Source: Kutzneria sp. 744 | GTDB lineage: Bacteria; Actinomycetota; Actinomycetes; Mycobacteriales; Pseudonocardiaceae | Length of the DNA stretch: 36,469 nucleotides | Reading direction: 5' to 3' | Assembly (NCBI RefSeq): GCF_000568255.1 | Contig: NZ_KK037166.1 | Location: 450,494 to 486,962 of the forward strand | Shown: piece by piece, positions 4,158 through 22,357 of the stretch | How positions within the stretch are numbered: the first letter of the stretch is position 1 | Layout: every line of letters starts with the position of its first letter | Made by a program: the position numbers and the translations under genes | The notes under the pieces: model-generated | Seen by the model: only the letters and a program-made list of their open reading frames with translations | Databases searched by the model: none | What the model was told of the DNA's origin: nothing

Positions 4158-4225
4158 CGTTGTTCCTTTCGTGGTGCGCGTCTCCGGGGAAAGCGCGCGA
4201 GTCGCGCAGTGACCGGACGCGAGCT

Positions 4226-4239: not shown

Positions 4240-4330
4240 TGGTTCAGGGAGATGGAAGCCCGCATCGAAGATCAGTTCAAGGGGCGACGCGTTCCGGTCG
4301 AGAACCGGCGAGGTCACCCGGGACATTCAC

Positions 4331-4343
4331 CTGAAAATTTCAG
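4331..4343. promoter_or_regulatory. Palindrome CTGAAAATTTCAG (GAAANTTTC class)
   Basis: A perfect six-base inverted repeat around one central base, between the divergent GH53 and GH43 genes. GAAANTTTC-type repeats are known upstream of actinomycete xylanase genes. Related copies here are at 15113-15123 and 35848-35858. Confidence 0.5.
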
Positions 4344-4373
4344 TGTGCCGCCGCGGGCGGGCGATGCCGACGA

Positions 4374-4500
4374 CCGTCGCACCGGCGGCGTCAGCAGCAC
4401 CGGGATGCCGCCGCGGTCACGCACACGGGTTGACCATCGTCGTACCGTTGCCGCGGAGGGCGGTCTCCGTGGTGTCCTTGTCGTTGTGCCCGAACCACAT
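4374..4500 (-). pseudogene. Relic of a CE12 rhamnogalacturonan acetylesterase
   Basis: Read on the minus strand, this gives FGHNDKDTTETA, then MVN, then, after a frame change, VRDRGGIPVLLTPPVRR. The same order occurs at residues 210-249 of the intact CE12 protein encoded at 15421-16473 (FGHNDKDTSESA, MVNGV, RERGGIPVLVTPPVRR). Only the SGNH block III region survives. The start, the catalytic Ser block and the end are missing, and there is at least one indel. It lies between GH53 and GH43, so an esterase gene was probably lost here. Confidence 0.75.
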
Positions 4501-4576
4501 ACCGCTCCGCTGTGAAACCGTCATGAGCGGATGCCGCGATCCGACGGTGCCCCAGCGCAGGAAGGTTGTCCAATCC

Positions 4577-4590
4577 TGGGAGCGTCCACA
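4577..4590. promoter_or_regulatory. Possible CebR-like half site upstream of GH43
   Basis: TGGGAGCGTCCACA matches 11 of 14 positions of the known actinomycete CebR/CelR box TGGGAGCGCTCCCA; the left half is exact and the right half degenerate. It lies about 80 bases before the GH43 start. This is weak evidence on its own. Confidence 0.25.
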
Positions 4591-4671
4591 ATGGACAAAT
4601 TCACCGCGCCGCCGGGCGGCTCCCCCGGCAGCGTCCTCACTCCCCTCCCGACTCGGCATGGAGGCATGCTC

Positions 4672-5664: not shown

Positions 5665-5709
5665 GCCGGGTCGTCGAGCACGACGTCGTCCGGACACCCC
5701 GAGGGCGTG

Positions 5710-5741
5710 CGAACCACCGCTGGCGTGCCAGCGGTGGTTCG
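5710..5741. terminator. Bidirectional terminator hairpin between convergent genes
   Basis: A perfect 15-base inverted repeat with a two-base centre (CGAACCACCGCTGGC / GCCAGCGGTGGTTCG). It sits between the stop of GH43 (5664) and the stop of the convergent beta-mannosidase (5755). There is no long T-run, as is usual in actinomycetes. Confidence 0.8.
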
Positions 5742-5754
5742 GCGACGTGGACGG

Positions 5755-8181
5755 TCACTGCTGTTGGCCGAGCTGATTCGCGCACCGCAGCACCGTCGGG
5801 TCGAGCAGCCGCGCCGGATCGAGTTCGGCGGAAGTCCGCACCAGGAAAGAAGTTTTCTCGCCCGGCAGCAAGGTCGTCAGCATGTCGCTGACCTCCGCGT
5901 CCCCGGCCACCCGGTCGGCGAGCACCGCGAGATCTCGCAACAGGGTCTCGGCGGTGACGGTGAGCAGGTAGCCGGTGGGCGCCGGCACGGCCTCCACATC
6001 GAACCGCGGCGCCGGCAACGACAGCAGCCGGTCGGGCCGGTAGAACCAGGTCGCCCGGACGTCGGCGGCGTCGGCGTCGGCGACCAGCAGCTCGGACTCC
6101 GGGCGCTGGGCGTCGACCAGGCCCGCCGGCAACACCGTGGTCACGGTTTGCCTTGCCGCGGCGTCGAAATCAACCCGAAGATCATCGAGCACGACGCCGT
6201 CGAAGGACATCCGCCGCACGTGCACGCTCGCGGTCCAGTCGCGGTCGCTGTCGTTGACGGCGACCAACGCCAGATCGGCCCCGCGCGGCTGCACGGTCAG
6301 CAGCCGGTCGGCGTAGGCGTTGCGTAAGGCGTACCAGGCCGGCTTGCGACCGCCGTCGCCGTCGATCACCGCCCAGGACGTCACCGGCCAGCAGTCGTTG
6401 AGCTGCCACACAATCGTGCCGGCGCACCGCGGTGCCCACGACCGGAAGTGCTCGATCCCCACGGTCAGCGCCCGCGCCTGGTTCAGCTGTGTCGCCCAGT
6501 GCCAGTCCTCGACCGTGAGCGGCGGCGGGAAGTGCTCCGCCAGCCTCGTTTCGAGCTTGTCGGCGCCGTCCTCCGCCTTCTGGTGCGCCAGCATGTGCGG
6601 CGAACGCGGAGTCAACGGTTCGTCATGCACCGCTCGCACCAGGGTCGACCATCTTGGCGGCCCCTGGAAGCCGAACTCGGCGGCGAACCGGGGGATGTGG
6701 TCGCGGTAGGCCAGATAGTCACGGTGGTTCCAGACGTCCCAGATATGCATGCTGCCGTGGTCGGGATCGTCGGGGTCCACGTCGGGGGACATCGACCAGG
6801 GACTGTGCGGCGTGTAGGGCCGGGTCGGGTCCAGTTCGGACAGCAACTTGGGCAGCAGGTCGAGGTAGTAGCCGACGCCCCAGCTGAGCTCGCCGAGCCG
6901 CTGCTGCCAGCCCCAGTTGTGGTAGCCGGACGCGCACTCGTTGCCGCCGTTCCACACCGCGAGACTGGGATGCGGGCACAGTCGGGTGATTGCCTCCCGC
7001 GCCTCGGCCGCGACCTCGTCGTAGAGCGGCTGTTCCTCGGGATACGCGGCGCACGCGAACAGGAAGTCCTGCCACACCAACAATCCCATCCGGTCACACA
7101 GGCCGTAGAAGTCCTCGCTCTCGTAGATCCCGCCGCCCCACACCCGGACGAGGTTGACGCCCGCGTCGCACGCCTGCGTCAGCCGGTCGCGGTAGCGGTG
7201 CTCGTCGACCCGGTGCGGGAAACAGTCGTCGGGGATCCAGTTGACACCGCGGGCGAAAATCGGCTTCCCGTTGACCACCAGGGTGAACGAGGTGCCGAGC
7301 TCGTCGGGCTCGCTGCGCACCTCGACCGTGCGGAAGCCGATCTCTCCCGCCCAGGTGTCGATCACGCCCTGCGCGCCGATCAGCTCGACCCGAACCGGGT
7401 AGAGCGGCTGCGCGCCGTGACCACGTGGCCACCACAGCCGCGGATTGTCCACCGCGACCTCGACGACGGTGCTGTGCACCCCCTCAGGGAGCGTGCTCTG
7501 CGACACTGTGTCGCCGACCTGCACCGCCACAAGCAGGTGATCGTCCACTGTGGCCCCTGAGCGCCGCACGTCCAGATGCACGGCGACACCTGCGTTCTCC
7601 ACCGAGGCCAGCGGACGCACCGCCGCCAGCCGGGCCGTCGACCAGGACTCCAGGGCGATCGGCCGCCAGATGCCGGCCGTCACCAGCTCCGGCCCCCAGT
7701 CCCAGCCGAAGTTGCAGGCCATCTTGCGCAGGTAGTTGTACGGGAAGCGGTTGACGTGCGGCCGGTCACCGAGTTCCGCCCGCGCCTTCTCGACGTGATC
7801 GAGTGCGGACGCGAACGTCACGATCAGCGTGTTGACACCGACCCGCAGCAGCTCCCGCACCTCGAACCGGTAGGTGCGGTGCATGTTGTGGGTTTCACCG
7901 ACGATCGTGCCGTTCAGTTCGATCGTGGCGATGGTGTCCAGTCCCTCGCATACGAGGTCGACATGGTCGTGGCCGTCGGGTTCCCAGTCGAACACGGTCG
8001 CGTAGCACCAGTCGGTGCGGCCGATCCAGGCCAGGTCCGCCTCGTTGCCGTCCAGGTAGGGATCGGGAATCCGCCCGGCGGCCAACAGATCGGTGTGCAC
8101 GCAGCCGGGAACGGCGGCGTCGATGACCGGTCCCCCGGATGCGGGACGCAGTGTCCATCCTTGCGACAGGGGTTTCCTCAC
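5755..8181 (-). CDS. Cytoplasmic GH2 beta-mannosidase
   Basis: Releases mannose from the non-reducing end of imported manno-oligosaccharides. It has 808 residues, no signal peptide and full GH2 architecture: a sugar-binding jelly roll (about 1-180), an Ig-like domain, a TIM barrel (about 300-620) and C-terminal sandwich domains. The acid/base is in WNGGNECASG (Glu415) and the nucleophile in AAEFGFQG (Glu502); MACNFGWDWGP (154-164) is typical of beta-mannosidases. It starts with GTG at 8181 without a clear Shine-Dalgarno site, so a leaderless message is possible. The operator at 8201-8212 lies 19 bases upstream. The LacI gene ends 32 bases before it on the same strand. Confidence 0.92.
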   Translation of the reverse strand: MRKPLSQGWTLRPASGGPVIDAAVPGCVHTDLLAAGRIPDPYLDGNEADLAWIGRTDWCYATVFDWEPDGHDHVDLVCEGLDTIATIELNGTIVGETHNMHRTYRFEVRELLRVGVNTLIVTFASALDHVEKARAELGDRPHVNRFPYNYLRKMACNFGWDWGPELVTAGIWRPIALESWSTARLAAVRPLASVENAGVAVHLDVRRSGATVDDHLLVAVQVGDTVSQSTLPEGVHSTVVEVAVDNPRLWWPRGHGAQPLYPVRVELIGAQGVIDTWAGEIGFRTVEVRSEPDELGTSFTLVVNGKPIFARGVNWIPDDCFPHRVDEHRYRDRLTQACDAGVNLVRVWGGGIYESEDFYGLCDRMGLLVWQDFLFACAAYPEEQPLYDEVAAEAREAITRLCPHPSLAVWNGGNECASGYHNWGWQQRLGELSWGVGYYLDLLPKLLSELDPTRPYTPHSPWSMSPDVDPDDPDHGSMHIWDVWNHRDYLAYRDHIPRFAAEFGFQGPPRWSTLVRAVHDEPLTPRSPHMLAHQKAEDGADKLETRLAEHFPPPLTVEDWHWATQLNQARALTVGIEHFRSWAPRCAGTIVWQLNDCWPVTSWAVIDGDGGRKPAWYALRNAYADRLLTVQPRGADLALVAVNDSDRDWTASVHVRRMSFDGVVLDDLRVDFDAAARQTVTTVLPAGLVDAQRPESELLVADADAADVRATWFYRPDRLLSLPAPRFDVEAVPAPTGYLLTVTAETLLRDLAVLADRVAGDAEVSDMLTTLLPGEKTSFLVRTSAELDPARLLDPTVLRCANQLGQQQ

Positions 8182-8200
8182 CCGGATGTTTCTACGGTGA

Positions 8201-8212
8201 TTAACCGGTTAA
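8201..8212. promoter_or_regulatory. Operator TTAACCGGTTAA, perfect palindrome
   Basis: A perfect 12-base palindrome with a central CG, between the end of the LacI gene and the GTG of the beta-mannosidase. Three further ACCGGT-cored sites (9259-9270, 9355-9366, 9400-9411) flank the divergent LacI/transporter promoters. Together they form a local regulon for the neighbouring LacI protein. Confidence 0.8.
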
Positions 8213-8213
8213 G

Positions 8214-9237
8214 TCAACGCTCCGTTCGGGGTGGCCCGGTGCTGCCCCGGACGACCAACGTCGGCTGCGCGGCGGCCTGGTCCTCGACCGCCTCGCCGTC
8301 CAGCAGCCGCAGCAGCATGGACACCGCCAGCTCGCCGTAGTCCACCACCGGCCTGCGCAGCGCGCTCAACGCCGGTCGGACCAGCCGGCACAGCACCGAA
8401 ATCGTCCCAAGCCACCAGGGAGAGGTCGCCGGGCACCGACAGGCCCAACTCCTGGGCGACGCCGAGCGCGGCCGTGGCCATCACGTCGTTGTCGAACACC
8501 AGCGCGGTCGGCGGGCGCTCAGCCACCAGCGCACGCCGGACCGCGCTGGCGCCGCCCTCGTCGGAGTAGTCGGTGTGCACGGTCCGCGACTCGGTCATTC
8601 CCAGCCGGGCAGTGGCCGCGGCGAACGCCTGCGCGCGAACGCTGGTGTGCACGAACTCCGCCGGGCCGGCGACGTGCACCACCCGTCGGTGCCCCAGCGC
8701 GGCGAGGTAGTCGAGCACCTCGGTCATGCCGGCGGCGTCGTCGGTCCAGGCACACGGCAGGTCGGCGCGGCCCAGTGGACCGCCGATCACCACCGCCGGC
8801 AAGCCGAGCCCGGTGACGAGGTCCAGCCTGGCGTCCTCCACGCGCAGGTCGACCAGCAGCACGCCGTCGACTCGACGCTCGGCGTGCCAGCGCCGGTAGA
8901 TGTCCAACTCGACGGCCTGATGGGAGGACACCTGCATGAGCAGCGAGGTCTGCCCCTCGCCGAGGCCGTTCTGGATGCCCGCCATCAGCCGCATGAAGAA
9001 GGGCTCCACGCCCAGCACCTCGGCGGGCCGGTCGACGACGACGCCGATGGCGCCCGCCTTGCCGTCCGACAGCGCCCTGGCCGCACTGCTGGGCGCCCAG
9101 CCCAACTGCCGGGCGATGGCCGCGATGCGCCGCCTGGTCTCGTCGGAGACGCCGGGCCGGCCGTTGAGCGCGTAGGAGACCGCCACCTTGGAGACTCCGG
9201 CCTCCCTGGCGATGTCCGCGATGGTAGGACGTCTCAC
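8214..9237 (-). CDS. LacI-family regulator of the mannoside module, frameshifted near the C-terminus
   Basis: A DNA-binding repressor with an N-terminal HTH (PTIADIAREAGVSKVAVSYALNG, described by its ends) and a periplasmic-binding-like sensor domain. GTG 9237 is chosen because GGAGG lies 8 bases upstream and the operator 9259-9270 lies just before it; a longer reading from 9288 would cross that operator. The frame breaks at 8399-8401: after AWDD it reads into nonsense, whereas removing one base from the A-run (plus strand) restores SVLCRLVRP, LRRPVVDYGELA and LVVRGSTGP to a stop at 8214, the standard LacI ending. As written, the open frame ends at 8209, inside the operator. This is either a real mutation or a sequencing indel. 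Confidence 0.85.
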
Positions 9238-9258
9238 CAAGATTGCCTCCGAACGCGC

Positions 9259-9270
9259 TGAACCGGTTAG
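9259..9270. promoter_or_regulatory. ACCGGT operator at the lacI promoter
   Basis: TGAACCGGTTAG lies 21 bases upstream of the LacI start and suggests autoregulation. Confidence 0.7.
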
Positions 9271-9354
9271 GCCGAGCTTAGCAATCAAGGCCGCGACGCA
9301 GCCGCCACCAGGAACGATGCCGATCCGACCCGACGCCTCTCATGGCAGCGGACT

Positions 9355-9411: not shown

Positions 9412-9445
9412 GTGTTTGGCTTGCCAGCTCATGGGAGGGGTTGCC

Positions 9446-9601
9446 ATGGACGCCAGGGCACACACGCCTTTCCCCGCTGGACGCCGCGGCGGCGCCAGCG
9501 GCACCGGCCTCGCCACCGGGTCCCCTGCCGCCGCTCGACCGAACGGTTTCGTCACCGCCCATCTGCTCTGCGAGGACGCCGAGGCGATGGCCGGCAGCTA
9601 G
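9446..9601 (+). CDS. Possible small leader ORF before the ABC operon
   Basis: An ATG with a strong GGGAGGGG 5 bases upstream opens a 51-residue frame ending at 9601, 38 bases before the transporter lipoprotein. The product is polar and low in complexity (Ala, Gly, Arg, Pro) with no signal, membrane segment or recognised domain. The good ribosome site is the only support; it may be a leader peptide or chance. Confidence 0.3.
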   Translation: MDARAHTPFPAGRRGGASGTGLATGSPAAARPNGFVTAHLLCEDAEAMAGS

Positions 9602-9639
9602 CCACCCGCACGGAAGCCGGAGCCAGGAGAGGATCAACG

Positions 9640-11319
9640 ATGTTCCCACAGGCACGTCGTGGCCACGCACGCGCAGCCGTCGTCGCAGTGGTCGCGGTCG
9701 CCGCGCTCGCCACCGGATGCGCGAGCGGCAAGAGCGCCGCCGACACCGGCACGCTCGTCGTCTACACCGGACAGGCCGGCGACTACCAGGTCAACTTCAA
9801 CCCGTTCTCGCCGAGCCCGATCGAGGGCCCCGGCACGATCTTCGAGCCGCTGTTCTACTTCAACCAGGTGCGAACCGACCCGCCCAAGCCCCTGCTCGGC
9901 ACCGCGTACAGCTGGAACGCCGACGGCACCCAGCTGTCGATCACGTTGCGCGACAACGCCACCTGGACCGACGGCCAGAAATTCACCGCCGACGACGTGG
10001 TGTTCACCCTGGACATGGTCGCGGCCAACAAGTCCATCAACGCCACCGGCTACGACGGACAGGCCAAGGCGGTCGACCCCGCCCACGTCGTGATCACGTT
10101 CCCCGAGCCGGCCTACATGCAGGGGCCGCAGGTGCTCGGCCGGCTGTACATCGTGCCGCAACATCTGTGGAAGGACGTCAAGGACCCGGCCACCGACGTG
10201 GTGGCCAAACCGGTGGGCACCGGTGCGTACGAGCTCGCGGAGTTCAAGCCGCAGGCCTTCACGCTCAAGGCCAACCCGCACTACTGGGGCGGCGAGCCCG
10301 CCGTGAAGCAGCTGCGCTACCTGGCGCTGTCGGGCAACCAGTCCGGCGCCGACGCGCTGGCGGCCGGTCAGATCGACTGGCAGACCGGGCCGGTGCCCGA
10401 CATCAAGAACGTGGCCAAGAACTATCCCGGCTACCAGGCGATCACCGTGCCGATGAACCAGATGGCGCTGTTCACCTGCGCCAACGCCCAGCTGGGCTGC
10501 ACCGGCCCGCAGACCGATCCGGCCGTGCGCCAGGCGATCTACTACGCGATCAACCGCAAGCAGCTCAACTCACTCGCCTTCGAGGACACCGCGAGCCCCA
10601 TCTCCCCCGGCTTCGCGCTGGCCGGCCGCGACGACAAGCTGATTTCGGGCAAGCTGCGGAACAAGCTGGCGCCGGACGCGCCGGACACCGCCAAGGCCGA
10701 GCAGCTGCTCCAGCAGGCCGGCTACCGCAAGGGCGCCGACGGCGGGTACGCCAAGGACGGCACGCCGCTGACGCTGACCGTGCAGGTGGTGTCCGGCTGG
10801 ACCGACTACATCACCGCGGTGAACACGATGGCCCAGCAGCTGCAGAAGGTCGGCATCAAGCTGACCGCCCAGCAGGAGTCCTGGAACCAGTGGTCCGACT
10901 CGCGCGGCCGGGGCCAGTTCCAGCTGCTGATCGACTCGCTCTACCAGGGCCCGGCCGCCGACCCGTACTACCTCTGGAACTACTTCTTCGACAGCGCCAA
11001 CACCGCACCGGTCGGCCAGACCGCCAACCCCGACTTCGCCCGGTTCTCCGACCCCGACGTGGACAAGGCGCTGGCCGAGCTGCGCAAGACGCAGACCGGC
11101 GACACGGCCGCCCGGCAGCCGTACTACGACACCATCCAGTCCCACATCGAGGACCAGCTGCCCTACATCCCCATCCTGACCGGCGGCACCACCAGCGAGT
11201 ACAACGCGAAGAAGTTCACCGGCTGGCCGAGCAAGGACAACCTGTACGCCTTCCCAGCGGTATGGGGACGGCCGGACGCGGCGCAGGTCTTCACCGCGCT
11301 CAAGCCCACCGGGCAGTGA
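9640..11319 (+). CDS. ABC transporter substrate-binding lipoprotein, peptide/oligosaccharide (SBP_bac_5) type
   Basis: Captures the substrate outside the membrane. The N-terminus has Arg residues, a hydrophobic stretch and a lipobox LATGC (Cys27). The mature protein shows family-5 solute-binding features: LRDNATWTDGQKFTADDVVFTL, PVGTGAY, VRQAIYYAINRK and NPDFARFSDPDVDKAL (given as landmarks). It has 559 residues, normal for the family. ATG 9640 follows AGGAGAGGA at good spacing. Although the family is called peptide-binding, actinobacterial and Thermotoga members carry oligosaccharides. The neighbouring beta-mannosidase and shared operators suggest manno-oligosaccharides (inference). Confidence 0.88.
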   Translation: MFPQARRGHARAAVVAVVAVAALATGCASGKSAADTGTLVVYTGQAGDYQVNFNPFSPSPIEGPGTIFEPLFYFNQVRTDPPKPLLGTAYSWNADGTQLSITLRDNATWTDGQKFTADDVVFTLDMVAANKSINATGYDGQAKAVDPAHVVITFPEPAYMQGPQVLGRLYIVPQHLWKDVKDPATDVVAKPVGTGAYELAEFKPQAFTLKANPHYWGGEPAVKQLRYLALSGNQSGADALAAGQIDWQTGPVPDIKNVAKNYPGYQAITVPMNQMALFTCANAQLGCTGPQTDPAVRQAIYYAINRKQLNSLAFEDTASPISPGFALAGRDDKLISGKLRNKLAPDAPDTAKAEQLLQQAGYRKGADGGYAKDGTPLTLTVQVVSGWTDYITAVNTMAQQLQKVGIKLTAQQESWNQWSDSRGRGQFQLLIDSLYQGPAADPYYLWNYFFDSANTAPVGQTANPDFARFSDPDVDKALAELRKTQTGDTAARQPYYDTIQSHIEDQLPYIPILTGGTTSEYNAKKFTGWPSKDNLYAFPAVWGRPDAAQVFTALKPTGQ

Positions 11320-11320
11320 C

Positions 11321-12310
11321 ATGGCGTACTACGCGCGCAAGATCGGCTTCTACGTGGTCGCGCTCTGGGCGGCGGTCACGCTGAACTTCCTCATCCCCAG
11401 GCTGATGCCCGGCAATCCGGTGGACACCCTGATGGCGAAGCTGGCGCAGCGGGGCGGCGCCGTCGATCCGTCGGTGCGCCGGGCCTACGCGCTGATGCTC
11501 GGCACGAACGACGGCCAGTCGCTGCCCCAGCAGTACTTCGGCTATCTCGGCAACCTGCTGCACGGGGAGTTCGGCATCTCGGTCAGCGAGTTCCCGGCCA
11601 AGGTGTCCGACGTGATCATGCAGTCGCTGCCGTGGACCGTCGTCCTGGTCGGCGTGGCGACGGTCATCTCGTTCGTGCTCGGGGTCGGGCTGGGTGCGGT
11701 GGTCGGTTGGAAGCGTGGCAGCTGGCTGGACACCCTGGTGCCGGCGACCACCGTGCTGGCCGCGGTGCCGTACTTCTGGCTGGCGCTGATCCTGGTGGCG
11801 CTGTTCGCGTCGGCACTCGGCTGGTTCCCCCTCAACGGCGGCTACGACGTCACGCTCACGCCCGGCTTCGATGCCGACTTCCTGTCCTCGGCCGTCTACC
11901 ACGCGGCGCTGCCGGCGCTGACGATCGTGATCTCCTCGGTCGGCGGCTGGCTGCTGGGCATGCGGAACATGATGGTGTCGGCCGGTTCGGAGGACTACGT
12001 GCTGACCGCCCAGGCCAAGGGGCTGCGCGACGCCAGGGTGATGATCCGCTACGCCGCCCGCAACGCCGTGCTGCCCTCGGTCGCCGGGTTCGCGATCTCG
12101 CTGGGCTTCGTGGTGTCCGGGTCCATCGTCACCGAGCAGGTCTTCTCCTATCCGGGCATCGGATCCAAGCTGCTGCAGGCCGTCCAGAACAACGACTACG
12201 CGCTGATGCAGGGGGTCTTCCTGGTGATCACGGTCGCCGTGCTGGGCGCCAACCTCGTCGTCGACCTGCTCTACGGCCTGCTCGACGCCCGTACCCGCGT
12301 GAGCCACTGA
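11321..12310 (+). CDS. ABC transporter permease, DppB/OppB type
   Basis: An inner-membrane subunit of 329 residues with an N-terminal membrane segment (KIGFYVVALWAAVTLNFLIPRLMPGNP, spanning about residues 6-32), about five more segments and the coupling loop near AQAKGLRDARVM. The ATG is one base after the stop of the binding protein, so the two are translationally coupled. It pairs with the permease half of the next gene. Confidence 0.9.
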   Translation: MAYYARKIGFYVVALWAAVTLNFLIPRLMPGNPVDTLMAKLAQRGGAVDPSVRRAYALMLGTNDGQSLPQQYFGYLGNLLHGEFGISVSEFPAKVSDVIMQSLPWTVVLVGVATVISFVLGVGLGAVVGWKRGSWLDTLVPATTVLAAVPYFWLALILVALFASALGWFPLNGGYDVTLTPGFDADFLSSAVYHAALPALTIVISSVGGWLLGMRNMMVSAGSEDYVLTAQAKGLRDARVMIRYAARNAVLPSVAGFAISLGFVVSGSIVTEQVFSYPGIGSKLLQAVQNNDYALMQGVFLVITVAVLGANLVVDLLYGLLDARTRVSH

Positions 12311-12320
12311 GGAGAGTGCC

Positions 12321-14027
12321 GTGAACCTGCTGCTCCCCCGCTGGTCCGCCAAGCTCGGTGTCGGTTTGGGCCTGGTGCTCGCGATCGCGCTGTTCGGACT
12401 CGTCGCCCCGCTGTTCGCCGGCGACCCCGACGCCATCCGCGACATCGGCATGACCCCGCCCGGTGGCGGGCATCTGCTCGGCACGACGCAGACGGGCCAG
12501 GACGTGTTCGCCCAGCTGGCCGCCGCCACCCGCGGCTCACTGCAGATCGGTCTGTTGGTCGGGCTGATGGCCACGCTGCTGTCCGGCGCCTTCGGCATCG
12601 TCGGCGGTTACGTCGGCAGCGTCGTCGACGAACTGTTCTCCTTGTTCACCAACGTGATGCTGGTGATCCCGGGCCTGCCGCTGGTGATCGTGATCGCCGG
12701 TTTCGTGCCGCCCGAACAGCGTGGCTCGTGGACGATCGCCATCGTGCTCGCGGTCACCGGCTGGGCGGCGTCGGCCCGCGTGCTGCGGGCGCAGACGCTC
12801 TCGCTGCGCAACCGGGACTACGTGGCGGCGGCCAAGGTCGCCGACGAGAAGACCTGGCGGATCGTCGTCGTGGAGATCCTGCCGAACCTGGCGCCGTTGC
12901 TGGCCTCGCAGTTCGTGTTCTCGGTGCTGCTGGCGATCCTGAGCGAGGCGGGCCTGTCCTTCGTCGGACTGGGTTCGTCGAACGCCTCGACACTGGGCAC
13001 GATGCTGTACTACGCGCAGAACGGCTTCGCGCTGCAACGCGGCGCGTGGTGGTGGTTCGTGCCGCCCGGGCTGCTGATCGCGCTGTTCGGCTGCGGTCTG
13101 TCGCTGATCAACTTCAGCATCGACGAGATCATCAATCCCCGGCTGCGCTCGGCCGCGGCCCGATCCGGCGCCACCAGGATCGAGCCCGACGCGCCGGCCG
13201 TGCGCCCAGCCCCGGACGCCGTCCTGACCGTTCGGGACCTGACCGTGGTCTACGGCACGCACGCGGCCGCCGTCCGCAATGTCTCCATGACGCTGCGCCG
13301 CGGCGAGATCCTCGGCCTGGCCGGCGAATCCGGCTGCGGCAAGACGACGCTGGCCTATGCGGTCAACCGCCTGCACCGCCCGCCGGCCGAGGTCGCCTCC
13401 GGCTCCGTGCTGTTCCACGACCGAGACGGCGCGACCGTCGACGTGCTGCGGCTGTCACCGGAGCAGCTGCGAGCGTTCCGCTGGACCAAGCTGTCCATGG
13501 TGTTCCAGGGCGCGATGAACTCGCTGAATCCAGTGACCCCGGTCGGCCGCCAGCTCGACGACGTGCTGCGCACCCACCGCCCGCGGTTGCGCCGCGAAGA
13601 ACGCCGCGCCCGCTGCGTCGAGGTGCTGCGTCTGGTCGGCATCGACCCCGAGCGACTCGGCTCGTACGCGCACGAGCTGTCCGGCGGCATGCGCCAGCGG
13701 GTGATGATCGCGATGGCGCTGCTGCTCGACCCGCAGGTGATGATCATGGACGAGCCGACAACAGCCCTGGACGTCGTGGTGCAGCGGGAGATCCTGCGCC
13801 AGCTCCTGCGGTTCCGCGACGAGTTGGGCTTCGCGGTCCTGCTCATCACCCACGACCTGCCGCTGCTGCTGGAGATCAGCGACCACATCGCGGTGATGCG
13901 AGACGGTGAGATCGTCGAGTACGGCGCCGCCGACGATATCCGCACGGCCGCACGGCACCCGTACAGCCAGCAGCTGCTGCGTTCGTTTCCCAGCCTCACC
14001 GAATCGGCGGTCGGAGGAGTGCAGTGA
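12321..14027 (+). CDS. ABC permease (DppC type) fused to ATPase (DppD type)
   Basis: Residues 1 to about 280 are a DppC-like permease ([15 protein letters not shown], six membrane segments, coupling loop near [11 protein letters not shown]). Residues from about 295 to 568 are a complete ATPase: Walker [10 protein letters not shown] (about 335-343), Q-loop [12 protein letters not shown], signature LSGGMRQR, Walker B VMIMDEP and H-loop LITHDL. Permease-ATPase fusions of this kind are common in actinobacteria. GTG 12321 has GAGGAG just upstream, and the gene overlaps the next by 4 bases (GTGA). This ATPase half is intact, unlike its partner downstream. Confidence 0.9.
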
Positions 14028-14986
14028 CCACGATGCACGTACGCAACCTGGTCAAGGACTTCACCGTCCGGTCGGGGCTGCGGCGCGGCACGCTGCGCGC
14101 GGTCGACGACGTGTCGTTCACCCTCAGCGCCGGCCGGACACTGGGCCTGGTCGGCGAGTCCGGGTCGGGCAAGTCCACGGTGGCCCGGCTGATCGCCCGC
14201 CTCGACCGGCCGACGTCGGGCACGATCAGCATCAGCGCCGACCACCCGGACCGGTCCTACCGGGACCTGGTGCAGATGGTGTTCCAGGACCCGTTCGCCT
14301 CGCTCAACCCGATGCACACCGTCGGCCACCACCTGGCCCGACCGCTGCTGCTGCATGGCCGGGCCCAGCGCGGCCGGGACGTCCAGCAGAAGGTGGCGGA
14401 GCTGCTGGAGCGGGTGAGCCTGCGGCCGGCGGCGGAGTTCGCGCGGCGGCGGCCGCACGAGCTGTCCGGGACTCCAGGAATGCCCGTAAATCGACGGCTC
14501 CTTACACTGCACTCTATGCAGACAATGTACAGCTGGTTCCACTTGGAGACGTCTTCGGATTCCAATGATACTCATAGTGTAAGCTCGGTTCTAGTACGAA
14601 GGATGTTCGCAGCGTCTCTTAAGAGCCTTCACTACGTATCGTTTCGAATTTATCACTCCGTCAGCCAACTCTGATTGTACTTCGCGAATCGGGGCTTCTC
14701 CAATATTGTTTGGCATTATGCGCTAGGATCCACCACCTTAGTGATCACTCACGACCTGGCGACCGCCCGGCACTTCTCCGACGACATCATCGTGATGTAC
14801 CGGGGCAGGGTCGTCGAGCGTGGCCCCGCCGACCAGGTGATCCTGACCCCGCGGCACCCTTACACGCAGCTGCTCGCCGCCTCGGTGCCCGATCCGGACG
14901 CCCGAGGCCGCGAGTTGCCGGCGGCCACGGAGATCGCCGGGAGCTCGACCCGTGCCTACGACCACTACGCAGGCGCCTGGCAGTGA
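14024..14986 (+). pseudogene. ABC transporter ATPase (DppF type), catalytic core replaced
   Basis: The 5' part (14024-14470) encodes Walker A GESGSGKST, Q-loop MVFQDPFASLNP and the beginning of the signature HELSG. The 3' part (from about 14741 to 14986) resumes with VITHDLATARHFSD (H-loop), then PRHPYTQLL and the C-terminus. Between them, where about 54 codons (rest of the signature, Walker B, D-loop) are expected, are about 270 bases of unrelated low-GC sequence. Both halves are in the same frame, with a single in-frame TGA at 14672-14674. As written the product cannot bind and hydrolyse ATP. Since the fused ATPase normally needs this partner, the transporter would be crippled unless the sequence is wrong here. 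Confidence 0.85.
14471..14740. other. Low-GC block of unknown origin inside the ATPase gene
   Basis: GC is about 47% by count against about 70% on both sides, with abrupt edges after 14470 and near 14740. It carries no convincing gene, no terminal inverted repeats and no target duplication. It replaces coding sequence rather than interrupting it. It contains nine six-base palindromes (for example TGTACA, CAGCTG, GACGTC, CTTAAG, TACGTA, TTCGAA, TCGCGA, AATATT, GGATCC) where about four would be expected by chance. It looks like random or synthetic filler, or an assembly error, more than actinomycete DNA. Confidence 0.8.
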
Positions 14987-15020
14987 CCAGGGCAGTCAGG
15001 GAGCGGTCCCCATGAGCTCA

Positions 15021-15420: not shown

Positions 15421-16473
15421 ATGTCCCTCATGCGTCAAGTGATCCTCATGACCGGCGTGACCGCGGCCGTGCTGGTTCCCACGCCGGTCGCGACAGCCGC
15501 ACCGCACGCCCTGCCCGCGCAGTGCTCGGGGACCGCACCGATCAAGTGCCACTTCGATGTGTCGCCGGGCAACTACGACGTCACCGTGGGCCTCGGCAGT
15601 GCCACCAAGGCAGCCAACACGTCGATGTCGGTCGAGGCTCGCAGGCAGATCCTGACCGCCGTCTCGACCGCCACGGGCCAGGTCGTCCCGACCACCGTCA
15701 CGGTCAACGTGCGCAGTCCGGAGGGGCAGCCCACGGGCCAGGGCGGCACCGGAACACCGGGGTTGGACATCACTTTCGCGGGCAGCTCCCCGGCGATCAG
15801 CTCCCTGACGGTGACCAAGGCCAACTCACCGCTGGTGGCGTACCTGGCCGGCGACTCGACCGTCTGCGACCAGCCGGTGGCCCCCTACACGGGCTGGGGC
15901 CAGATCCTGCCTACGGACGTCCGCAACGGCGCCGTGATCGCCAACTACGCCGACTCCGGCGAGAGCTCCGGCAGCTTCCTGGCCAACAAGGCGCTGTTTC
16001 CGACGCTCAAGGCATTGATCAAGCCCAAGGACCTGGTGTTCATCCAGTTCGGGCACAACGACAAGGACACGTCGGAAAGCGCTTTCCATAACAACCTGGC
16101 CGCGATGGTCAACGGTGTGCGGGAGCGCGGCGGCATCCCGGTGCTGGTGACGCCGCCGGTACGGCGGCTGTTCAACGGCACCACGCTCACGCCGACCGCC
16201 TTGCACGTCAACACCAAGGGCGTCGACCTGCCCGCGGTGATCCGCGCGCTCGGCAAGAGCGCGAACGTGCCGGTGGTCGACCTGACCGCCAAGAGCAAGA
16301 ACCTCGTGCAGGGCCTGGGCCCGGCCGGCTCACAGAAGATCTATCTCAGCAAGGCCAGCGACGGCGTCAGCGACAACACGCACTTCTCGCAGTACGGCGC
16401 GACGCAGATGGCCAATCTCGTCGTGCAGGGCATCCGCGAGCTGAACCTGCCGCTGGTCGGCTACCTGCGCTGA
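15421..16473 (+). CDS. Secreted CE12 rhamnogalacturonan acetylesterase
   Basis: Removes acetyl groups from the RG-I backbone so that lyases can act. A signal peptide runs to about residue 27 (ATA-AP), then a beta-rich N-terminal domain (about 38-125), then an SGNH hydrolase (about 138-350). Block I is AGDSTV (Ser146), block III is FGHNDKD (Asn213) and block V is SDNTHFSQYG (Asp318, His321); the DNTHF form is typical of CE12. ATG 15421 follows AGGAGAA at 6-base spacing. It is the first gene of a six-gene operon with gaps of 13-65 bases. A broken copy lies at 4374-4500. Confidence 0.9.
   Translation: MSLMRQVILMTGVTAAVLVPTPVATAAPHALPAQCSGTAPIKCHFDVSPGNYDVTVGLGSATKAANTSMSVEARRQILTAVSTATGQVVPTTVTVNVRSPEGQPTGQGGTGTPGLDITFAGSSPAISSLTVTKANSPLVAYLAGDSTVCDQPVAPYTGWGQILPTDVRNGAVIANYADSGESSGSFLANKALFPTLKALIKPKDLVFIQFGHNDKDTSESAFHNNLAAMVNGVRERGGIPVLVTPPVRRLFNGTTLTPTALHVNTKGVDLPAVIRALGKSANVPVVDLTAKSKNLVQGLGPAGSQKIYLSKASDGVSDNTHFSQYGATQMANLVVQGIRELNLPLVGYLR
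16074..16087. promoter_or_regulatory. Perfect palindrome GGAAAGCGCTTTCC inside the CE12 coding region
   Basis: A perfectly symmetric version of the GGAAAGCGCTTACC operator, within codons for Ser-Glu-Ser-Ala-Phe. It may be an internal operator or a chance result of coding; the codon choice does not decide. Confidence 0.3.
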
Positions 16474-16504
16474 CCGTTCACACTGGACAGAGACGAGGAA
16501 GGCC

Positions 16505-17515
16505 ATGCCCCTCAGCACAAGGTCGCGAGCAGTGGCCGTCGTCGTGGCGGTCGTGGCCGCGGTGACCACCGCGGTGCAGCCGGCCTCGGCGGCCACCGGT
16601 GACGGCTCGCCCACCGACTCCAACATCCGGTACTTCGGACGCTGGGACACCCGGTCGCCGAGCACGTACGTGTCCGAATGGGCCGGCGCGTACGCGGTGC
16701 TCGGCTTCACCGGCACCACGGTGCAACTGCGCCAGCGCAACAGCGTCGACCTGTACACAAGCATCGACAACGGCGGCTGGGTGACGCACCCGAACGTTCA
16801 TGGAACGGTGAACCTGACCCCGACCCGGCTGCCGTCCGGCACACACACGCTGCGTGTGGCCTACCGCCAGGACGCCGGCTCCTATCACGGCGACGGGGTG
16901 TTCCAGGGCGTGACCCTGGACTCCGGCGCGCACACCGTGGCACCGAGCGTGCCGTCCCGGATCATCGAGTTCGTCGGCGACTCGATCACGGCCGGCTACA
17001 AATCGTCCAAGGAGGCGCTGACCGCGTACGGCTGGCTGACCGCGGAGAAGCTCGGCGCCGCGCACACCGAGATCGCCCGCCCCAGTGTCTGCCTCTCCCC
17101 GTCCTCCGGGTGCATCGGCATGCGCGACCGGTACTTCAAGACGGGAGTGGACACCAGCACACCGGACTGGGACTTCTCCCGCTACCAGGCCAGCGAGGTG
17201 GTGATCAACCTCGGCACCAACGACGTCGGCCACGGCGTCTCCGGCTCCCAGTTCCAGACCGCGTACACCACGCTGCTGGCCCGGATCCGTGCGAAGTACC
17301 CGAACGCCACCATCTACGCGATGGAGACCTTCCACAAGTTGTACGTCAACGAGACCAAGGCCGCGGTCGCCGCCCGCACCAAGGCCGGCGACGGCAAGGT
17401 CCGGTTCATCGACACCGAGGGCTGGATCACCGCCTCCGACACCGCGGACGGCACGCATCCCACCGACGGCGGACACCAGAAGATCGCCGCCCGGCTCGCA
17501 CAGATCATCGGGTGA
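16505..17515 (+). CDS. Secreted CE2-type acetylesterase (jelly roll plus SGNH domain)
   Basis: Probably deacetylates wall polysaccharides or their oligosaccharides. A signal peptide (to about residue 30) is followed by a small beta-sandwich (about 40-140, YFGRWDTRSPSTY) and an SGNH domain with EFVGDSITAG (Ser160), NLGTNDVG (Asn239) and ADGTHPTDGGH (Asp315, His318). This two-domain order is that of carbohydrate esterase family 2. It is a bare enzyme of 336 residues. GAGGAAGG precedes the ATG; it is 31 bases downstream of CE12. Confidence 0.85.
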   Translation: MPLSTRSRAVAVVVAVVAAVTTAVQPASAATGDGSPTDSNIRYFGRWDTRSPSTYVSEWAGAYAVLGFTGTTVQLRQRNSVDLYTSIDNGGWVTHPNVHGTVNLTPTRLPSGTHTLRVAYRQDAGSYHGDGVFQGVTLDSGAHTVAPSVPSRIIEFVGDSITAGYKSSKEALTAYGWLTAEKLGAAHTEIARPSVCLSPSSGCIGMRDRYFKTGVDTSTPDWDFSRYQASEVVINLGTNDVGHGVSGSQFQTAYTTLLARIRAKYPNATIYAMETFHKLYVNETKAAVAARTKAGDGKVRFIDTEGWITASDTADGTHPTDGGHQKIAARLAQIIG

Positions 17516-17553
17516 GCCGCCCGCCGTCACGAACCCCTGGAGAAGGGAGTGCC

Positions 17554-19785
17554 ATGCGTAGGTTCGCCATCAGCCGGCGGTTGGCCGTCGCCGCCGCGAG
17601 CATCGTGGCGGTGGCGCTGGCCCCGAGCACGGTGGAAGCGGTCACGCCGGCCGCCCCGCACGTGGCCGGCGCCGCCTCCGCGGACGCCGCCAACCGGTTC
17701 CGCACGGTCACCGACTTCGACCCCGGTTGGCTGTTCCACTACGGCGACGCGAGCGGCGCCGGCGGCGGCGCCTATCCCGACGGCAACTGGCGCACCCTCA
17801 GCGTTCCGCACGACTGGAGCATCGAAGGCCCGAACCCACCGTCCGACCCGTTCTCCCAGTCGGCCCCGAGCACCGGCCGCGGCGGTTACGCGCCGTCGGG
17901 AATCGGCTGGTACCGCAAGCACTTCTCGCTGGCCAGTGTGCCCAGCACCCGCAAGGTGTACATCGAGTTCGACGGTGTGATGGCCAACGCGAGCGTGTAC
18001 GTGAACGGCGCGCTCATCGGCACCCGTCCCGACGGCTACACCAGCTTCCGCTACGACATCACGGCGGCGGCGAAGTTCGGCGGCGCCGACAACGTCATCG
18101 CCGTCAAGACCGACACCAGCCTGCAACCGGCGTCCCGGTACTACACCGGCGCCGGGATCTACCGCGACGTCCGTCTCATCGCGACGGATCCGGTGCACGT
18201 CGACCAGTGGGCCACCTACGTCACGACACCGAACCTCGCCACGGTCCACGCGCAGACCACCGTGGTCAACAGCGGCAACGCGACAGCGAACGTGAGCGTG
18301 CAGGGGGTGCTCACCGATCCGGACGGCATGACACTGTCCCCGGTCACCACCGCCGCGAAAACCATCGCCGCCGGCGCCTCGGCGACCTTCGGCTATGACG
18401 TGCCGGTGAGCAGCCCCAAGCTCTGGAGCCTGACTACGCCGAACCTGTACTCGTTGGCCACCAACGTGATCGCCGGCGGCTCGGCGGTCGACGACGACGT
18501 CACCCCGGTCGGCATCCGCAGCCTGACGTTCAGCGCGTCGGACGGGATGAAGCTGAACGGCAAGAGCGTGAAGTTCCAAGGCGTCGCGCTGCACCAGGAC
18601 TACCACGGGCTCGGCATGGCGGCCCCGCAGCGGGCCGTGCAACGGCGGCTGGCCGAGCTCAAGGCGTTGGGCGTGAACGCGATCCGGACCGCGCACGACC
18701 CGCCGAGTCCAGCCTTCCTGGAGCTCACGGATCGGATGGGTTTCCTGGTGCTGGACGAGTTCTTCGACGTCTGGACCCAGCACAAGTACTCCGACGTCGG
18801 CGACTACGCGACGTACTTCAACCGCACCGCGTCCTCGCCCACCGGCGCCCCACCAGTACCTGCCGCGACCGGCTCGACGCCGTGGTACCAGGTCGACGCC
18901 ACCAGCATCGTCGCCCGCGACCGCAACCACCCCAGCGTGGCGATGTGGAGCGCCGGCAACGAGATCCGCGACTCGCTGTCGACCCGCACGCCGCTGCTGA
19001 CCAGGATGGTGTCGATCTCGCACGCGCTGGACCCGAGTCGCCCGGTCACCCAGGCCCTGTTCCGGCCGGCCGACAGCGGCGACGTCACCGGCGCCACCCG
19101 CACCACCCTCGACGTCTTCGGCGGCAACTACCGGCCCGACGACGTCATCAAGGCCATGAAGACGTCGCCCGCGCGGCCCGGACTGTTCACCGAGATGGGC
19201 ACCGACACGTCGGCGTGGACGACGGTGAAGAACAACCCGGGTGTCACGGGCCTGTTCATCTGGACGGGCGCGGCCTACCTCGGCGAGGCCGACAAGTTGT
19301 GGCCCGATGTCGAGAGCGGTTTCGGCCTGATGGACGCGGTCGGCACGGTGCGGCCGATCGGGTACTCCTGGCAGAGCACATGGGGTGCGCCCCGGACTTC
19401 GCCGCCGCCGACCGGCACCACGGCCACCAAGGTGCTACTCGCTCCGGACGAGACCACGGTGTCCACGGACGTCAACGACGTCTCGTACGTGAAGGCGACC
19501 ATCGCGGACGCCTCCGGCCGAATCGTGACCAGTTCGTCCGCGCCGATCACCTACAGCATCAGCGGACCCGGCGTGATCGTGGCGGTCGACAGCGGCAGCC
19601 CGGTCCAGGAGAGCTTCCGCGGCACCGTCCGCAAGGCTTACCAGGGCGTGGCGTACGCCCTGGTACGAGCGACCGGACCGGGCGTCATCACGGTGACGGC
19701 GAGCGCCGGCGGGCTGACGTTGGGCAAGACCACTCTGACCGGCGCCATCACGCCGTTCGTGCCCTGCTCGGGCAGCTGCGACTGA
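17554..19785 (+). CDS. Secreted GH2 beta-glycosidase (beta-galactosidase-like)
   Basis: A retaining exo-enzyme of 743 residues that acts outside the cell, unlike the cytoplasmic beta-mannosidase. A signal peptide (to about residue 30) precedes the GH2 sugar-binding domain (FDGVMANASVYVNG, SRYYTGAGIYRDV), an Ig-like domain, a TIM barrel with LGVNAIRTAHDPPSP, the acid/base in WSAGNE (Glu470) and the probable nucleophile in FTEMGTD (Glu547), and C-terminal Ig-like domains. Beta-galactosidase is the nearest general description. In this operon the substrate could equally be a galactan or uronic-acid-linked fragment. The frame stays open far upstream (from 16678), but only ATG 17554 has a ribosome site (GGGAG) and a signal. 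Confidence 0.85.
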   Translation: MRRFAISRRLAVAAASIVAVALAPSTVEAVTPAAPHVAGAASADAANRFRTVTDFDPGWLFHYGDASGAGGGAYPDGNWRTLSVPHDWSIEGPNPPSDPFSQSAPSTGRGGYAPSGIGWYRKHFSLASVPSTRKVYIEFDGVMANASVYVNGALIGTRPDGYTSFRYDITAAAKFGGADNVIAVKTDTSLQPASRYYTGAGIYRDVRLIATDPVHVDQWATYVTTPNLATVHAQTTVVNSGNATANVSVQGVLTDPDGMTLSPVTTAAKTIAAGASATFGYDVPVSSPKLWSLTTPNLYSLATNVIAGGSAVDDDVTPVGIRSLTFSASDGMKLNGKSVKFQGVALHQDYHGLGMAAPQRAVQRRLAELKALGVNAIRTAHDPPSPAFLELTDRMGFLVLDEFFDVWTQHKYSDVGDYATYFNRTASSPTGAPPVPAATGSTPWYQVDATSIVARDRNHPSVAMWSAGNEIRDSLSTRTPLLTRMVSISHALDPSRPVTQALFRPADSGDVTGATRTTLDVFGGNYRPDDVIKAMKTSPARPGLFTEMGTDTSAWTTVKNNPGVTGLFIWTGAAYLGEADKLWPDVESGFGLMDAVGTVRPIGYSWQSTWGAPRTSPPPTGTTATKVLLAPDETTVSTDVNDVSYVKATIADASGRIVTSSSAPITYSISGPGVIVAVDSGSPVQESFRGTVRKAYQGVAYALVRATGPGVITVTASAGGLTLGKTTLTGAITPFVPCSGSCD

Positions 19786-19798
19786 GGGAGAAGTGAGC

Positions 19799-21124
19799 AT
19801 GAAACGTTCTCTGGTGATCTCCGCGGTGACCGCGATCGCGGTCACCGTCCTCGGCAGTGCGGCGGCCGTGGCCGGTCCAGCGGCCGGCCGGACCTACTAC
19901 GTCGCCCCCGCCGGCAGCGACAGCGCGGCGGGAACCCCGGCCGCCCCCTGGGCCTCGATCGCCCACGCCCAGTCCGTCGTCCAGCCGGGCGACACGGTGT
20001 ACTTCCGCAGCGGCACCTACGGCTACTCGCACGCGAACAGCGGCTGCAAGAGCCAGACCGACCGGGTGGACGCGATCACGCTGAGCCGCAGCGGCAGCTC
20101 GGGCAACCTGATCACCTACGCCGCCTACCCCGGTGAGCGGCCGGTCTTCGACTTCTCGAAGGTCAAGGACAACTGCCGCATCAAGGGCTTCGACGTCACC
20201 GGGAACTGGATCCACCTCAAGGGGCTGGAAGTCCAGGGCGTGCCCCAGAACAACAACCTCAACCACGAGTCGTGGGGCATCTGGATCTCGGGCAGCGACA
20301 ACGTGTTCGAGCTGATCAACGCCCACAACAACATGGGTCCCGGCCTGTTCATCCAGGACGGCGGCGACAACCTCGTGCTCAACTGCGACTCGCACGACAA
20401 CTACGACCCGCACACCTCCAACGGGGCCGGCCAGAGCGCCGACGGCTTCGGCGCGCACATCTCGGCCAACCACCCGGGCAACGTGTTCCGCGGCGACCGC
20501 GCCTGGTGGAACTCCGACGACGGCTTCGACCTCATCAACGCCTTCTCCTCGGTGACCATCGAGAACTCCTGGACCTGGCGCAACGGCTACCTGCCCGAGT
20601 CGACCACGCCCGCGCCGGCCGGCAACGGCAACGGCTTCAAGGCGGGCGGCTACGGCGGCGTCTACGTCTCGAACGGCGCCAAGCACACGGTCCGCGACTC
20701 GGTGGCGTTCGACAACAAGGTCTCGGGCTTCTACGCCAACCACCACACGATCGCCAACGACTACTTCAACAACACCGCCTACGGCAACCACCCGGACTTC
20801 AACATGCTCGGGATCAACTCCAGCGGCAAGGCGGTCGGTCTGGGCAACCTGCGCAACAACATCGCCTACACCGGCACCCTGCTGTCGAACATGTCCGGCA
20901 CCAACGCCTCCTACAACTCCTGGAACCTGGGCGTGTCCCTGTCGGACTCGCAGTTCCGCAGCGTGTCGACGTCAGGCTGGGACGGGCCGCGCCAGGCCGA
21001 CGGCAGCCTGCCCGTGCTGCCCAACCTCCGCCTCGCCGCGAACAGCTCCCTCATCGACAAGGGCACCAACGTCGGCCTGCCGTACAACGGGAAGGCGCCG
21101 GATCTCGGCGCCTTCGAGTTCTGA
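19799..21124 (+). CDS. Secreted PL9 pectate/rhamnogalacturonan lyase
   Basis: A right-handed parallel beta-helix lyase that cleaves the polygalacturonate or RG-I backbone by beta-elimination. A signal peptide precedes RTYYVAPAGSDSAAGT (31-46), a PL9 start. The catalytic base is Lys281 in GNGFKAGG. Asp215, Asp240, Asp241 and Asp244 (SADGFG and NSDDGFDLIN) match the spacing of the calcium ligands known in PL9 Pel9A. ATG 19799 is chosen over GTG 19793 because GAGGGAG is 8 bases before it and only 2 before the GTG. It has 441 residues and no binding module. It lies 13 bases after GH2. Confidence 0.9.
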   Translation: MKRSLVISAVTAIAVTVLGSAAAVAGPAAGRTYYVAPAGSDSAAGTPAAPWASIAHAQSVVQPGDTVYFRSGTYGYSHANSGCKSQTDRVDAITLSRSGSSGNLITYAAYPGERPVFDFSKVKDNCRIKGFDVTGNWIHLKGLEVQGVPQNNNLNHESWGIWISGSDNVFELINAHNNMGPGLFIQDGGDNLVLNCDSHDNYDPHTSNGAGQSADGFGAHISANHPGNVFRGDRAWWNSDDGFDLINAFSSVTIENSWTWRNGYLPESTTPAPAGNGNGFKAGGYGGVYVSNGAKHTVRDSVAFDNKVSGFYANHHTIANDYFNNTAYGNHPDFNMLGINSSGKAVGLGNLRNNIAYTGTLLSNMSGTNASYNSWNLGVSLSDSQFRSVSTSGWDGPRQADGSLPVLPNLRLAANSSLIDKGTNVGLPYNGKAPDLGAFEF

Positions 21125-21142
21125 CACCGGAGGACCAAGGAC

Positions 21143-22357
21143 GTGAACAGAACACTTGCGGCACTGCTGGCAGCGGCCGGCCTCGCGCTGACGGCGCCCG
21201 GCACCGCGACGGCCGCCACCGCCTGGGTCGCCGGCTGGTCCGTCAGCCCGGTCGTGGGATCCACCATCCCCGGCAACACCTGCCCGGCCGGTGCCGGGCT
21301 CACCAACCAGACCGTGCGCAACGTCGTGTTCCTCAGCGCCGGCGGCGACCACGTGCGGGTACGGCTGACCAACACCTTCGGCACCAAGCCACTGGCCGTC
21401 GACCACGCCTCGGTCGCGGTGCAGGGCAACGGCGCCTCCCCGGCCGCCGGCACCCTGCGGGAGCTGACCTTCCAGGGCCGGCGTGCGGTGACCGTGCCGG
21501 CGGGCGCGCAGGAGTACAGCGACCCGGTGTCGCTGCGGGTCGCGGCGCTGTCCACGCTGCTGGTCAGCGCACACGTGGCCGGTCCGACCGGGCCGCTGAT
21601 CAACCACCCGTTCACCGCCCAGGGCAACTATCTGGCCGGCGGGGACGCAACCCTCGCCGCGGACAGCGGACGGTTCGGGACCACCCCGTGCTGGATGCTG
21701 GCCGACGGGGTGGACGTGGCACCGGCGGCCGCGGTGACGGGCACCGTCGTGGCCTTCGGCGACTCGATCACCGACACCGCCAACACGACCGGCAACGCCA
21801 ACCACCGCTGGCCGGACTTCCTGGCCCGGCGGCTGGCCGCGCAGCCCGGCAGGACCCTGTCGGTGGCCAACGCGGGCCTGGGCGGCAACCGCGTCATCGC
21901 CGACCGGCCCGGCCAGCCGTACTACGGGGTCGCCGGGGTGACCCGGTTCCAGCGCGACGCGCTGGGCGTCACCGGCGTGCGGACCGTGGTGCTCCTGGAA
22001 GGCGTCAACGACATCGGCTACGACGCCACCGCCACCGCCATCATCGGCGGCTACCGCCAGATGATCACCGCCGCGCACGCCCGTGGCGTCCGAATCGTCG
22101 GCGCGACCCTCACCCCGTTCGGCGGGTCGGGCATCGACACCCCGGCGCGCCGCCAGACCTGGCAGCAGCTCAACGACTGGATCCGGCACAGCGGCATGTT
22201 CGACGGAGTGGTCGACTTCGACGCCGCCACCGCGGACCCCACCGACTCGTTCCGTCTGCGCCCCGCCTACGACTCCGGCGATCACCTGCATCCCGGCGAC
22301 GCCGGCACCCGGGCGATGGCCAACGCAGTCGACCTGGCCGCTCTGCTCCGCACCTGA
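21143..22357 (+). CDS. Secreted SGNH/GDSL hydrolase, probable carbohydrate acetylesterase
   Basis: The third SGNH enzyme of the operon and of a different subfamily from its neighbours. A signal peptide (to about residue 25) is followed by an N-terminal beta-rich region (VRVRLTNTFGTKPL) and the SGNH blocks: AFGDSITD (Ser208), NAGLGGNRV (Gly248/Asn249), LLEGVNDIG (Asn289) and SGDHLHPGDAG (Asp380, His383). The substrate is not visible; the operon context suggests O-acetyl or other ester groups on pectin. It has a GTG start with GGAGGACCAAGGA upstream, and is 404 residues long. Confidence 0.82.
   Translation: MNRTLAALLAAAGLALTAPGTATAATAWVAGWSVSPVVGSTIPGNTCPAGAGLTNQTVRNVVFLSAGGDHVRVRLTNTFGTKPLAVDHASVAVQGNGASPAAGTLRELTFQGRRAVTVPAGAQEYSDPVSLRVAALSTLLVSAHVAGPTGPLINHPFTAQGNYLAGGDATLAADSGRFGTTPCWMLADGVDVAPAAAVTGTVVAFGDSITDTANTTGNANHRWPDFLARRLAAQPGRTLSVANAGLGGNRVIADRPGQPYYGVAGVTRFQRDALGVTGVRTVVLLEGVNDIGYDATATAIIGGYRQMITAAHARGVRIVGATLTPFGGSGIDTPARRQTWQQLNDWIRHSGMFDGVVDFDAATADPTDSFRLRPAYDSGDHLHPGDAGTRAMANAVDLAALLRT

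What the first reader, a model, noticed from the sequence alone, without database searches (positions are those of the whole stretch)
14471..14740. A low-GC block replaces the catalytic core of an ABC ATPase gene
Sequence: about 47% GC in about 70% GC surroundings, with sharp edges; the gene resumes in the same frame at VITHDLATARHFSD. About 54 expected codons (end of the signature, Walker B, D-loop) are gone and about 90 unrelated codons with one TGA stand in their place. There are no inverted repeats, target duplication or gene inside, and an excess of six-base palindromes (nine against about four expected). A mobile element would insert rather than replace. Likely explanations are an assembly or gap-filling artefact, synthetic filler, or an unusual recombination. 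If real, the mannoside transporter has lost one ATPase.
Basis: partly seen in the sequence, partly recalled or inferred. Interest (0 to 1): 0.75.

Follow-up and report, generated by a model that had tools for sequence, protein, structure and literature searches.

The report
Computer-generated random filler in assembly gap
The odd block in the transporter gene is not DNA of any organism but 274 letters from a computer's random-number routine, written into a gap of the genome assembly, as in many other places of the same genome sequence.

Summary
Window 14471-14744 (274 bases, 47% GC) stands where six related loci have 160 bases encoding the end of the signature, Walker B and the D-loop of an oligopeptide-type ABC ATPase. 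The letters are output of the additive-feedback generator of glibc/BSD random (lags 3 and 31, A,C,G,T = 0-3): 243 of 243 testable bases obey its rule. The next longest run in the window is 15; the longest in 151 loci (1.84 Mb) of other genomes is 23. The state solved from the block reproduces exactly 15 further stretches (3,888 bases) of the same genome. In the 1.6 Mb of it that I read there are 35 such runs, 23 forward and 12 reversed; the 30 solved lie on one stream. The genome is a gapped scaffold, and the window is the piece between two 100-N runs. So this is unmarked pseudo-random gap filler, most likely from the making of the assembly. The kept frame is coincidence, and whether the strain's ATPase is intact is unknown.

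The parts
14471..14744 (+). 274 consecutive outputs of an additive-feedback random generator (glibc/BSD random() type) written as A,C,G,T: pseudo-random gap filler, no biological content
   Evidence: 243 of 243 relations, zero full-model mismatches and failure at both neighbouring bases, 15 other stretches of the genome predicted from its state
14024..14470 (+). genuine 5' part of the second ABC ATPase gene of an oligopeptide-type transporter (Walker A to start of signature), cut by the gap
   Evidence: ABC_tran on 148 aa, E 6.6e-20; alignment to six relatives
14745..14986 (+). genuine 3' part of the same gene (ITHDLATARHFSD region and oligo_HPY tail)
   Evidence: oligo_HPY, E 6.7e-10; alignment to six relatives
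12321..14027 (+). upstream gene: permease domain joined to the first ABC ATPase, one open frame
   Evidence: BPD_transp_1 and ABC_tran on one 568-aa frame
9412..11319 (+). family 5 solute-binding protein gene of the operon
   Evidence: SBP_bac_5, E 5.7e-69
11321..12310 (+). permease gene of the operon
   Evidence: BPD_transp_1, E 5e-37

Best explanation
The block is an assembly gap filled with pseudo-random letters. Shown: it is 274 consecutive outputs of the additive-feedback generator used by glibc/BSD random(), low two bits of the output written A,C,G,T = 0..3; the same generator run stands in many other places of the genome. Shown: position on the stream follows genome position in groups, forward in 0.2-5.65 Mb and reversed in 7.0-10.7 Mb. 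Inferred: a program turned runs of unknown bases of several scaffolds into random bases in file order, after which the scaffolds were ordered, some turned, and joined into one 11.6 Mb sequence with N gaps. Inferred: 274 was the estimated gap size and about 160 real bases are missing. The program is not identified.
For: 243 of 243 relations o[i]-o[i-3]-o[i-31] in {0,1} mod 4 hold in 14471-14744; next longest run in the window 15. The hidden low bit is solved without contradiction, carry frequency 0.25 as the generator demands, zero mismatches. 35 runs of 26 or more relations in 1.6 Mb of G000, 23 on + and 12 on -. 30 of 35 were solved; all 30 lie on one stream by their hidden bit, within 1.27 million draws. 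Of the 29 neighbouring pairs on the stream, 7 are consecutive or nearly so: -1, 0, 0, 0, 1, 10 and 28 draws between them. The state from the window block predicts 15 other stretches, 3,888 bases, letter for letter. Controls: 151 loci, 1.84 Mb of other genomes, both strands, longest run 23. 30 random-like segments pooled, 8,452 bases: composition p 0.73, dinucleotides p 0.71; 30 natural 270-mers of like GC: dinucleotide p 6e-32; 28 of these 30 segments hold a generator run. Gapped scaffold: 85 N runs in 1.6 Mb; window bounded by two 100-N runs. The six relatives compared have 160 bases and all motifs.
Against: None against the generator origin. Not explained: why most gaps are N runs (50 of 85 exactly 100; some N runs may be stretches withheld by the operators) while others are filled; why many draws are not found in the sequence. 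In the fully read 190-590 kb, 28,271 draws lie before and 21,719 after the window block to the next solved fills, of which one search finds only fills of 20 and 139 bases and perhaps 17. glibc seed 1 does not give the block within 6 million draws, so seed or seeding routine is unknown. Two of the 30 random-like segments have no generator run. That the fill lies in the public record and not in later handling is inferred, not seen.
Confidence: 0.99

Rival explanations
1. A natural low-GC insertion with deletion: mobile element remnant, or filler DNA captured by end joining.
For: Replaces rather than inserts, sharp edges, frame kept.
Against: The letters are predicted by a random-number generator. 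No match in plasmids, phages or E. coli genomes; in the 199 other related genomes only chance words, best E 0.02, 19 bases.
Confidence: 0.002
2. Contaminating vector, host or adaptor DNA in a chimeric read.
For: GC near 47% resembles E. coli (recalled); no relation to the surroundings.
Against: No match in 20,395 E. coli records, in plasmids or in phages; generator rule holds. Eukaryote and vector databases were not at hand.
Confidence: 0.001
3. The random letters were written in when the genome was prepared for this scan, not by the makers of the assembly.
For: The window equals the held genome letter for letter, and no independent copy of the sequence could be read (the best 80 loci do not include the own genome).
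Against: Fills occur from 0.2 to 10.7 Mb on one stream, forward in 0.2-5.65 Mb and reversed in 7.0-10.7 Mb, with stream order 3.24-5.65, 0.20-2.06, 10.61-7.01, 10.69 Mb: the fill preceded the ordering and turning of scaffolds. N runs elsewhere remain N.
Confidence: 0.02

Closest known systems
Replacement of ambiguous bases by random bases in sequence software: phyloFlash database step (PMC7593591, passages seen) and a gap-filling benchmark on human chromosome 17 (PMC5590988, passages seen); bwa index and some assembly toolkits (recalled, not checked)
   Same: Unknown letters become random A, C, G or T without a mark.
   Different: In the two papers this is a working copy for mapping or simulation; here it stands in a genome sequence. 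The generator is the lag 3/31 additive type; the low bits of lrand48, which I recall bwa using, did not fit. The responsible program is not identified.
N-run scaffold gaps
   Same: Same genome; GC of flanks raised in both (0.729 for 30 random-like segments, 0.715 for N gaps, 0.696 at random places).
   Different: Not marked as unknown, so gene finders read through it.

Membership tests
glibc/BSD random() output mod 4 | o[i] = o[i-3] + o[i-31] + carry (0 or 1) mod 4 | tested here: met
   243 of 243 in 14471-14744; at most 23 in a row in 151 loci of other genomes
glibc/BSD random() output mod 4 | carry comes from a hidden low bit that follows its own lag 3/31 rule, frequency one quarter | tested here: met
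   solved without contradiction, carry 0.25; zero mismatches
glibc/BSD random() output mod 4 | a known seeding, such as glibc seed 1 | tested here: inconclusive
   block not within the first 6 million draws of glibc seed 1; wider seed search timed out
mobile element | terminal inverted repeats and target duplication | tested here: not met
   only 8-9 nt inverted repeats touch the block; it replaces 160 bases
mobile element | transposase or other gene inside | tested here: inconclusive
   longest stop-free stretch 61 codons in the 265-base core; no protein-family scan of the block (one search failed)
ABC transporter ATPase (oligopeptide type) | Walker A and N-terminal half | tested here: met
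   ABC_tran E 6.6e-20 on 14024-14467
ABC transporter ATPase (oligopeptide type) | full signature, Walker B and D-loop | tested here: inconclusive
   present in the six relatives translated; in the window the stretch is filler, so the true sequence is unknown

The most novel reading that the evidence does not exclude
Unmarked pseudo-random filler from one assembly process stands in other public genomes too, so that part of the orphan or broken genes in databases are random-number output; the lag 3/31 test would find and delimit each case to within a few bases. My controls found none in the parts of other genomes that I held, which is a small sample.
Probability: 0.5. Interest if true: 0.45.

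Novelty: not a real feature. Interest (0 to 1): 0.25.

Why it matters
It has no biology, but it is a warning. At the sampled density (35 runs in 1.6 Mb) this one genome would hold about 250 such fills, by extrapolation. Each can break or fake a gene or shift a frame, and none is marked N. A simple arithmetic test detects those longer than about 55 bases with near certainty and finds their ends, and can be run on any genome collection.

Tried and rejected
Foreign origin: blastn of the block against plasmids, phages and E. coli genomes gave nothing. Of 200 related genomes, own included, 38 had a match at E up to 1; apart from the own block the best was E 0.02 over 19 bases. Rfam: nothing. Palindrome excess as a sign of design: rejected on pooling. 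Random letters put only into this window: rejected, since the window lies between two N runs and fills are genome-wide. Low bits of lrand48, MSVC, ANSI and Borland rand: no hit in 30 segments. glibc seed 1: no. A wider seed search timed out without output and was not repeated.

Rows dropped or against the reading: the two-state scan gave 44 segments of 40 bits or more in 1.6 Mb of G000 against 6 in 400 kb of three same-genus genomes. Some of the 44 are natural low-GC DNA (for example L177:918-2310 with a 422-codon open stretch). Of 31 that passed 0.2 bits per base and 1 kb, I dropped one in the rRNA region L127 before pooling 30. Two of these 30 (L123:13878-14118, L156:18456-18628) hold no generator run and are probably natural. 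Of the 35 generator runs, five were not solved: four had too few equations, one (836925) had chance bases at its left edge; that one and the one at 534659 were recovered by prediction. In one search two 17-base matches are not counted, as about that many are expected by chance (my estimate); a 20-base one is counted because it lies in order.

Other fills against relatives: at 203998-204262 three genomes have 176-180 bases where G000 has 263-264; L196:12658-13024 had no related locus in 60 genomes, own included. Papers: 15 of 84 seen in the listing; 2; 1; none; no listed title or abstract start reports such fills in a deposited genome; passages of PMC7593591 and PMC5590988 were seen. One search, a search on the genus Kutzneria (my recalled guess at the organism), was not taken further.

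Full report
What is there. The window is letter for letter the stretch 450494-486962 of G000, an 11,646,492-base single scaffold, and lies between two N runs of exactly 100. At 9.4-15.0 kb it carries an oligopeptide-type ABC transporter operon: a family 5 binding protein, a permease, a permease joined to an ATPase, and a second ATPase. The second ATPase gene starts at 14024. At 14471 the GC content falls from above 70% to about 47% and recovers at about 14745.

Comparison with relatives. Of 100 genomes searched with 13200-15000 (own included), 54 had a match at E up to 1e-30. I compared the six best loci besides the own (G002, G013, G026, G027, G056, G073). All six match on both sides of the block and have 160 bases at its place. 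Their translations have the complete signature, Walker B and D-loop (motif names recalled). The difference, 114, is a multiple of three, so the frame is kept, a 1-in-3 coincidence.

No source. The block has no match in the plasmid, phage or E. coli collections, only chance words in the 199 other related genomes searched, and no RNA family.

The same thing elsewhere in the genome. I read 80 stretches of 20 kb, 1.6 Mb or about 14% of G000. They hold 85 N runs, 50 of exactly 100 bases, so this is a gapped draft, though some N runs may be stretches withheld by the operators. A scan for segments better explained by uniform random letters than by the genome's own composition found 44 of 40 bits or more, the window block among them, against 6 in 400 kb of three same-genus genomes. 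Thirty of them, trimmed and pooled to 8,452 bases, are even in composition (p 0.73) and show no dinucleotide bias (p 0.71), while 30 natural 270-mers of like GC depart with p 6e-32. Of these 30, 28 later proved to hold generator output and two did not.

Proof of the source. Random-looking letters can be tested for particular generators. The glibc/BSD random generator adds the terms 3 and 31 steps back and drops the lowest bit (recalled; my script's seed-1 stream begins with 1804289383, 846930886), so that consecutive outputs mod 4 obey o[i] = o[i-3] + o[i-31] + 0 or 1. With A,C,G,T = 0,1,2,3 this holds for 243 of 243 testable bases of 14471-14744; chance would give half. The next longest run in the window is 15. 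In 151 loci of other genomes, 1.84 Mb on both strands, the longest is 23. The hidden low bit that makes the carry can be solved and is consistent. The full model has no mismatch in the block and fails at the first base on either side, 14470 and 14745.

One stream through the genome. In the 1.6 Mb there are 35 runs of 26 or more relations: 23 on the plus strand between 0.20 and 5.65 Mb and 12 on the minus strand between 7.0 and 10.7 Mb. Thirty were solved, and by their hidden bit all thirty lie on one stream within about 1.27 million draws. Stream order is 3.24 to 5.65 Mb, then 0.20 to 2.06 Mb, then 10.61 down to 7.01 Mb, then 10.69 Mb. Of the 29 neighbouring pairs, seven have -1 to 28 draws between them, three of these exactly 0; the other 22 have 163 to 327,776, much of it in parts that I did not read. 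Run forward and backward by 60,000 draws from the window block, the generator gives 15 other stretches in the 500 kb compared (plus strand), 3,888 bases in all and up to 731 in one, letter for letter. They include fills of 20, 46 and 48 bases, too short for the first test, and all 15 follow genome order. No other plus-strand match of 17 bases or more from that part of the stream lies in the window.

Reading. A program replaced runs of unknown bases by random bases while reading several scaffolds in file order; the scaffolds were then ordered, some reversed, and joined. This inference places the fill in the making of the assembly and not in the preparation of the window. I could not read an independent copy: the best 80 loci of the one genome-contig scan do not include the own genome, which may be left out there. 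Flanks of the 30 segments are richer in GC than random places (0.729 against 0.696; N-gap flanks 0.715) and fold more stably (-24.3 against -21.0; N-gap flanks -22.8 kcal/mol), as expected where sequencing failed.

What remains open. The program and seed are unknown. Many draws between fills are not found even in the fully read 190-590 kb, and most gaps are N runs; perhaps fills were later closed or marked again as N. Whether the strain's ATPase is intact cannot be told from this sequence; nothing shows that it is broken.

Noticed in passing
G000:C1:203998-204262 (L156:13598-13862): A second random fill, 263-265 bases, at a place where three same-genus genomes have 176-180 bases against 263-264.
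   Followed up: partly
L133:12107-12316: A random fill in the middle of a strong inverted repeat (GAGTCACGCTCT ... AGAGCGTGACTC), which looks like the loop of a terminator hairpin.
   Followed up: no
L127:11431-15839: A ribosomal RNA region (start of a 16S gene read by eye, no tool run) is broken by N runs of 411 and 424 bases.
   Followed up: no
between 5.65 and 7.0 Mb of G000: The strand of the random fills changes from plus to minus between these places, which points to a join of scaffolds of opposite orientation.
   Followed up: partly
window 1519-9288 and 15421-22357: The transporter operon lies among carbohydrate genes: GH5 with ricin-type lectin, GH43, two GH2-type enzymes, a LacI regulator, three GDSL esterase-like proteins and a Pel9A-like beta-helix protein (10 proteins scanned, one without a match).
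   Followed up: no
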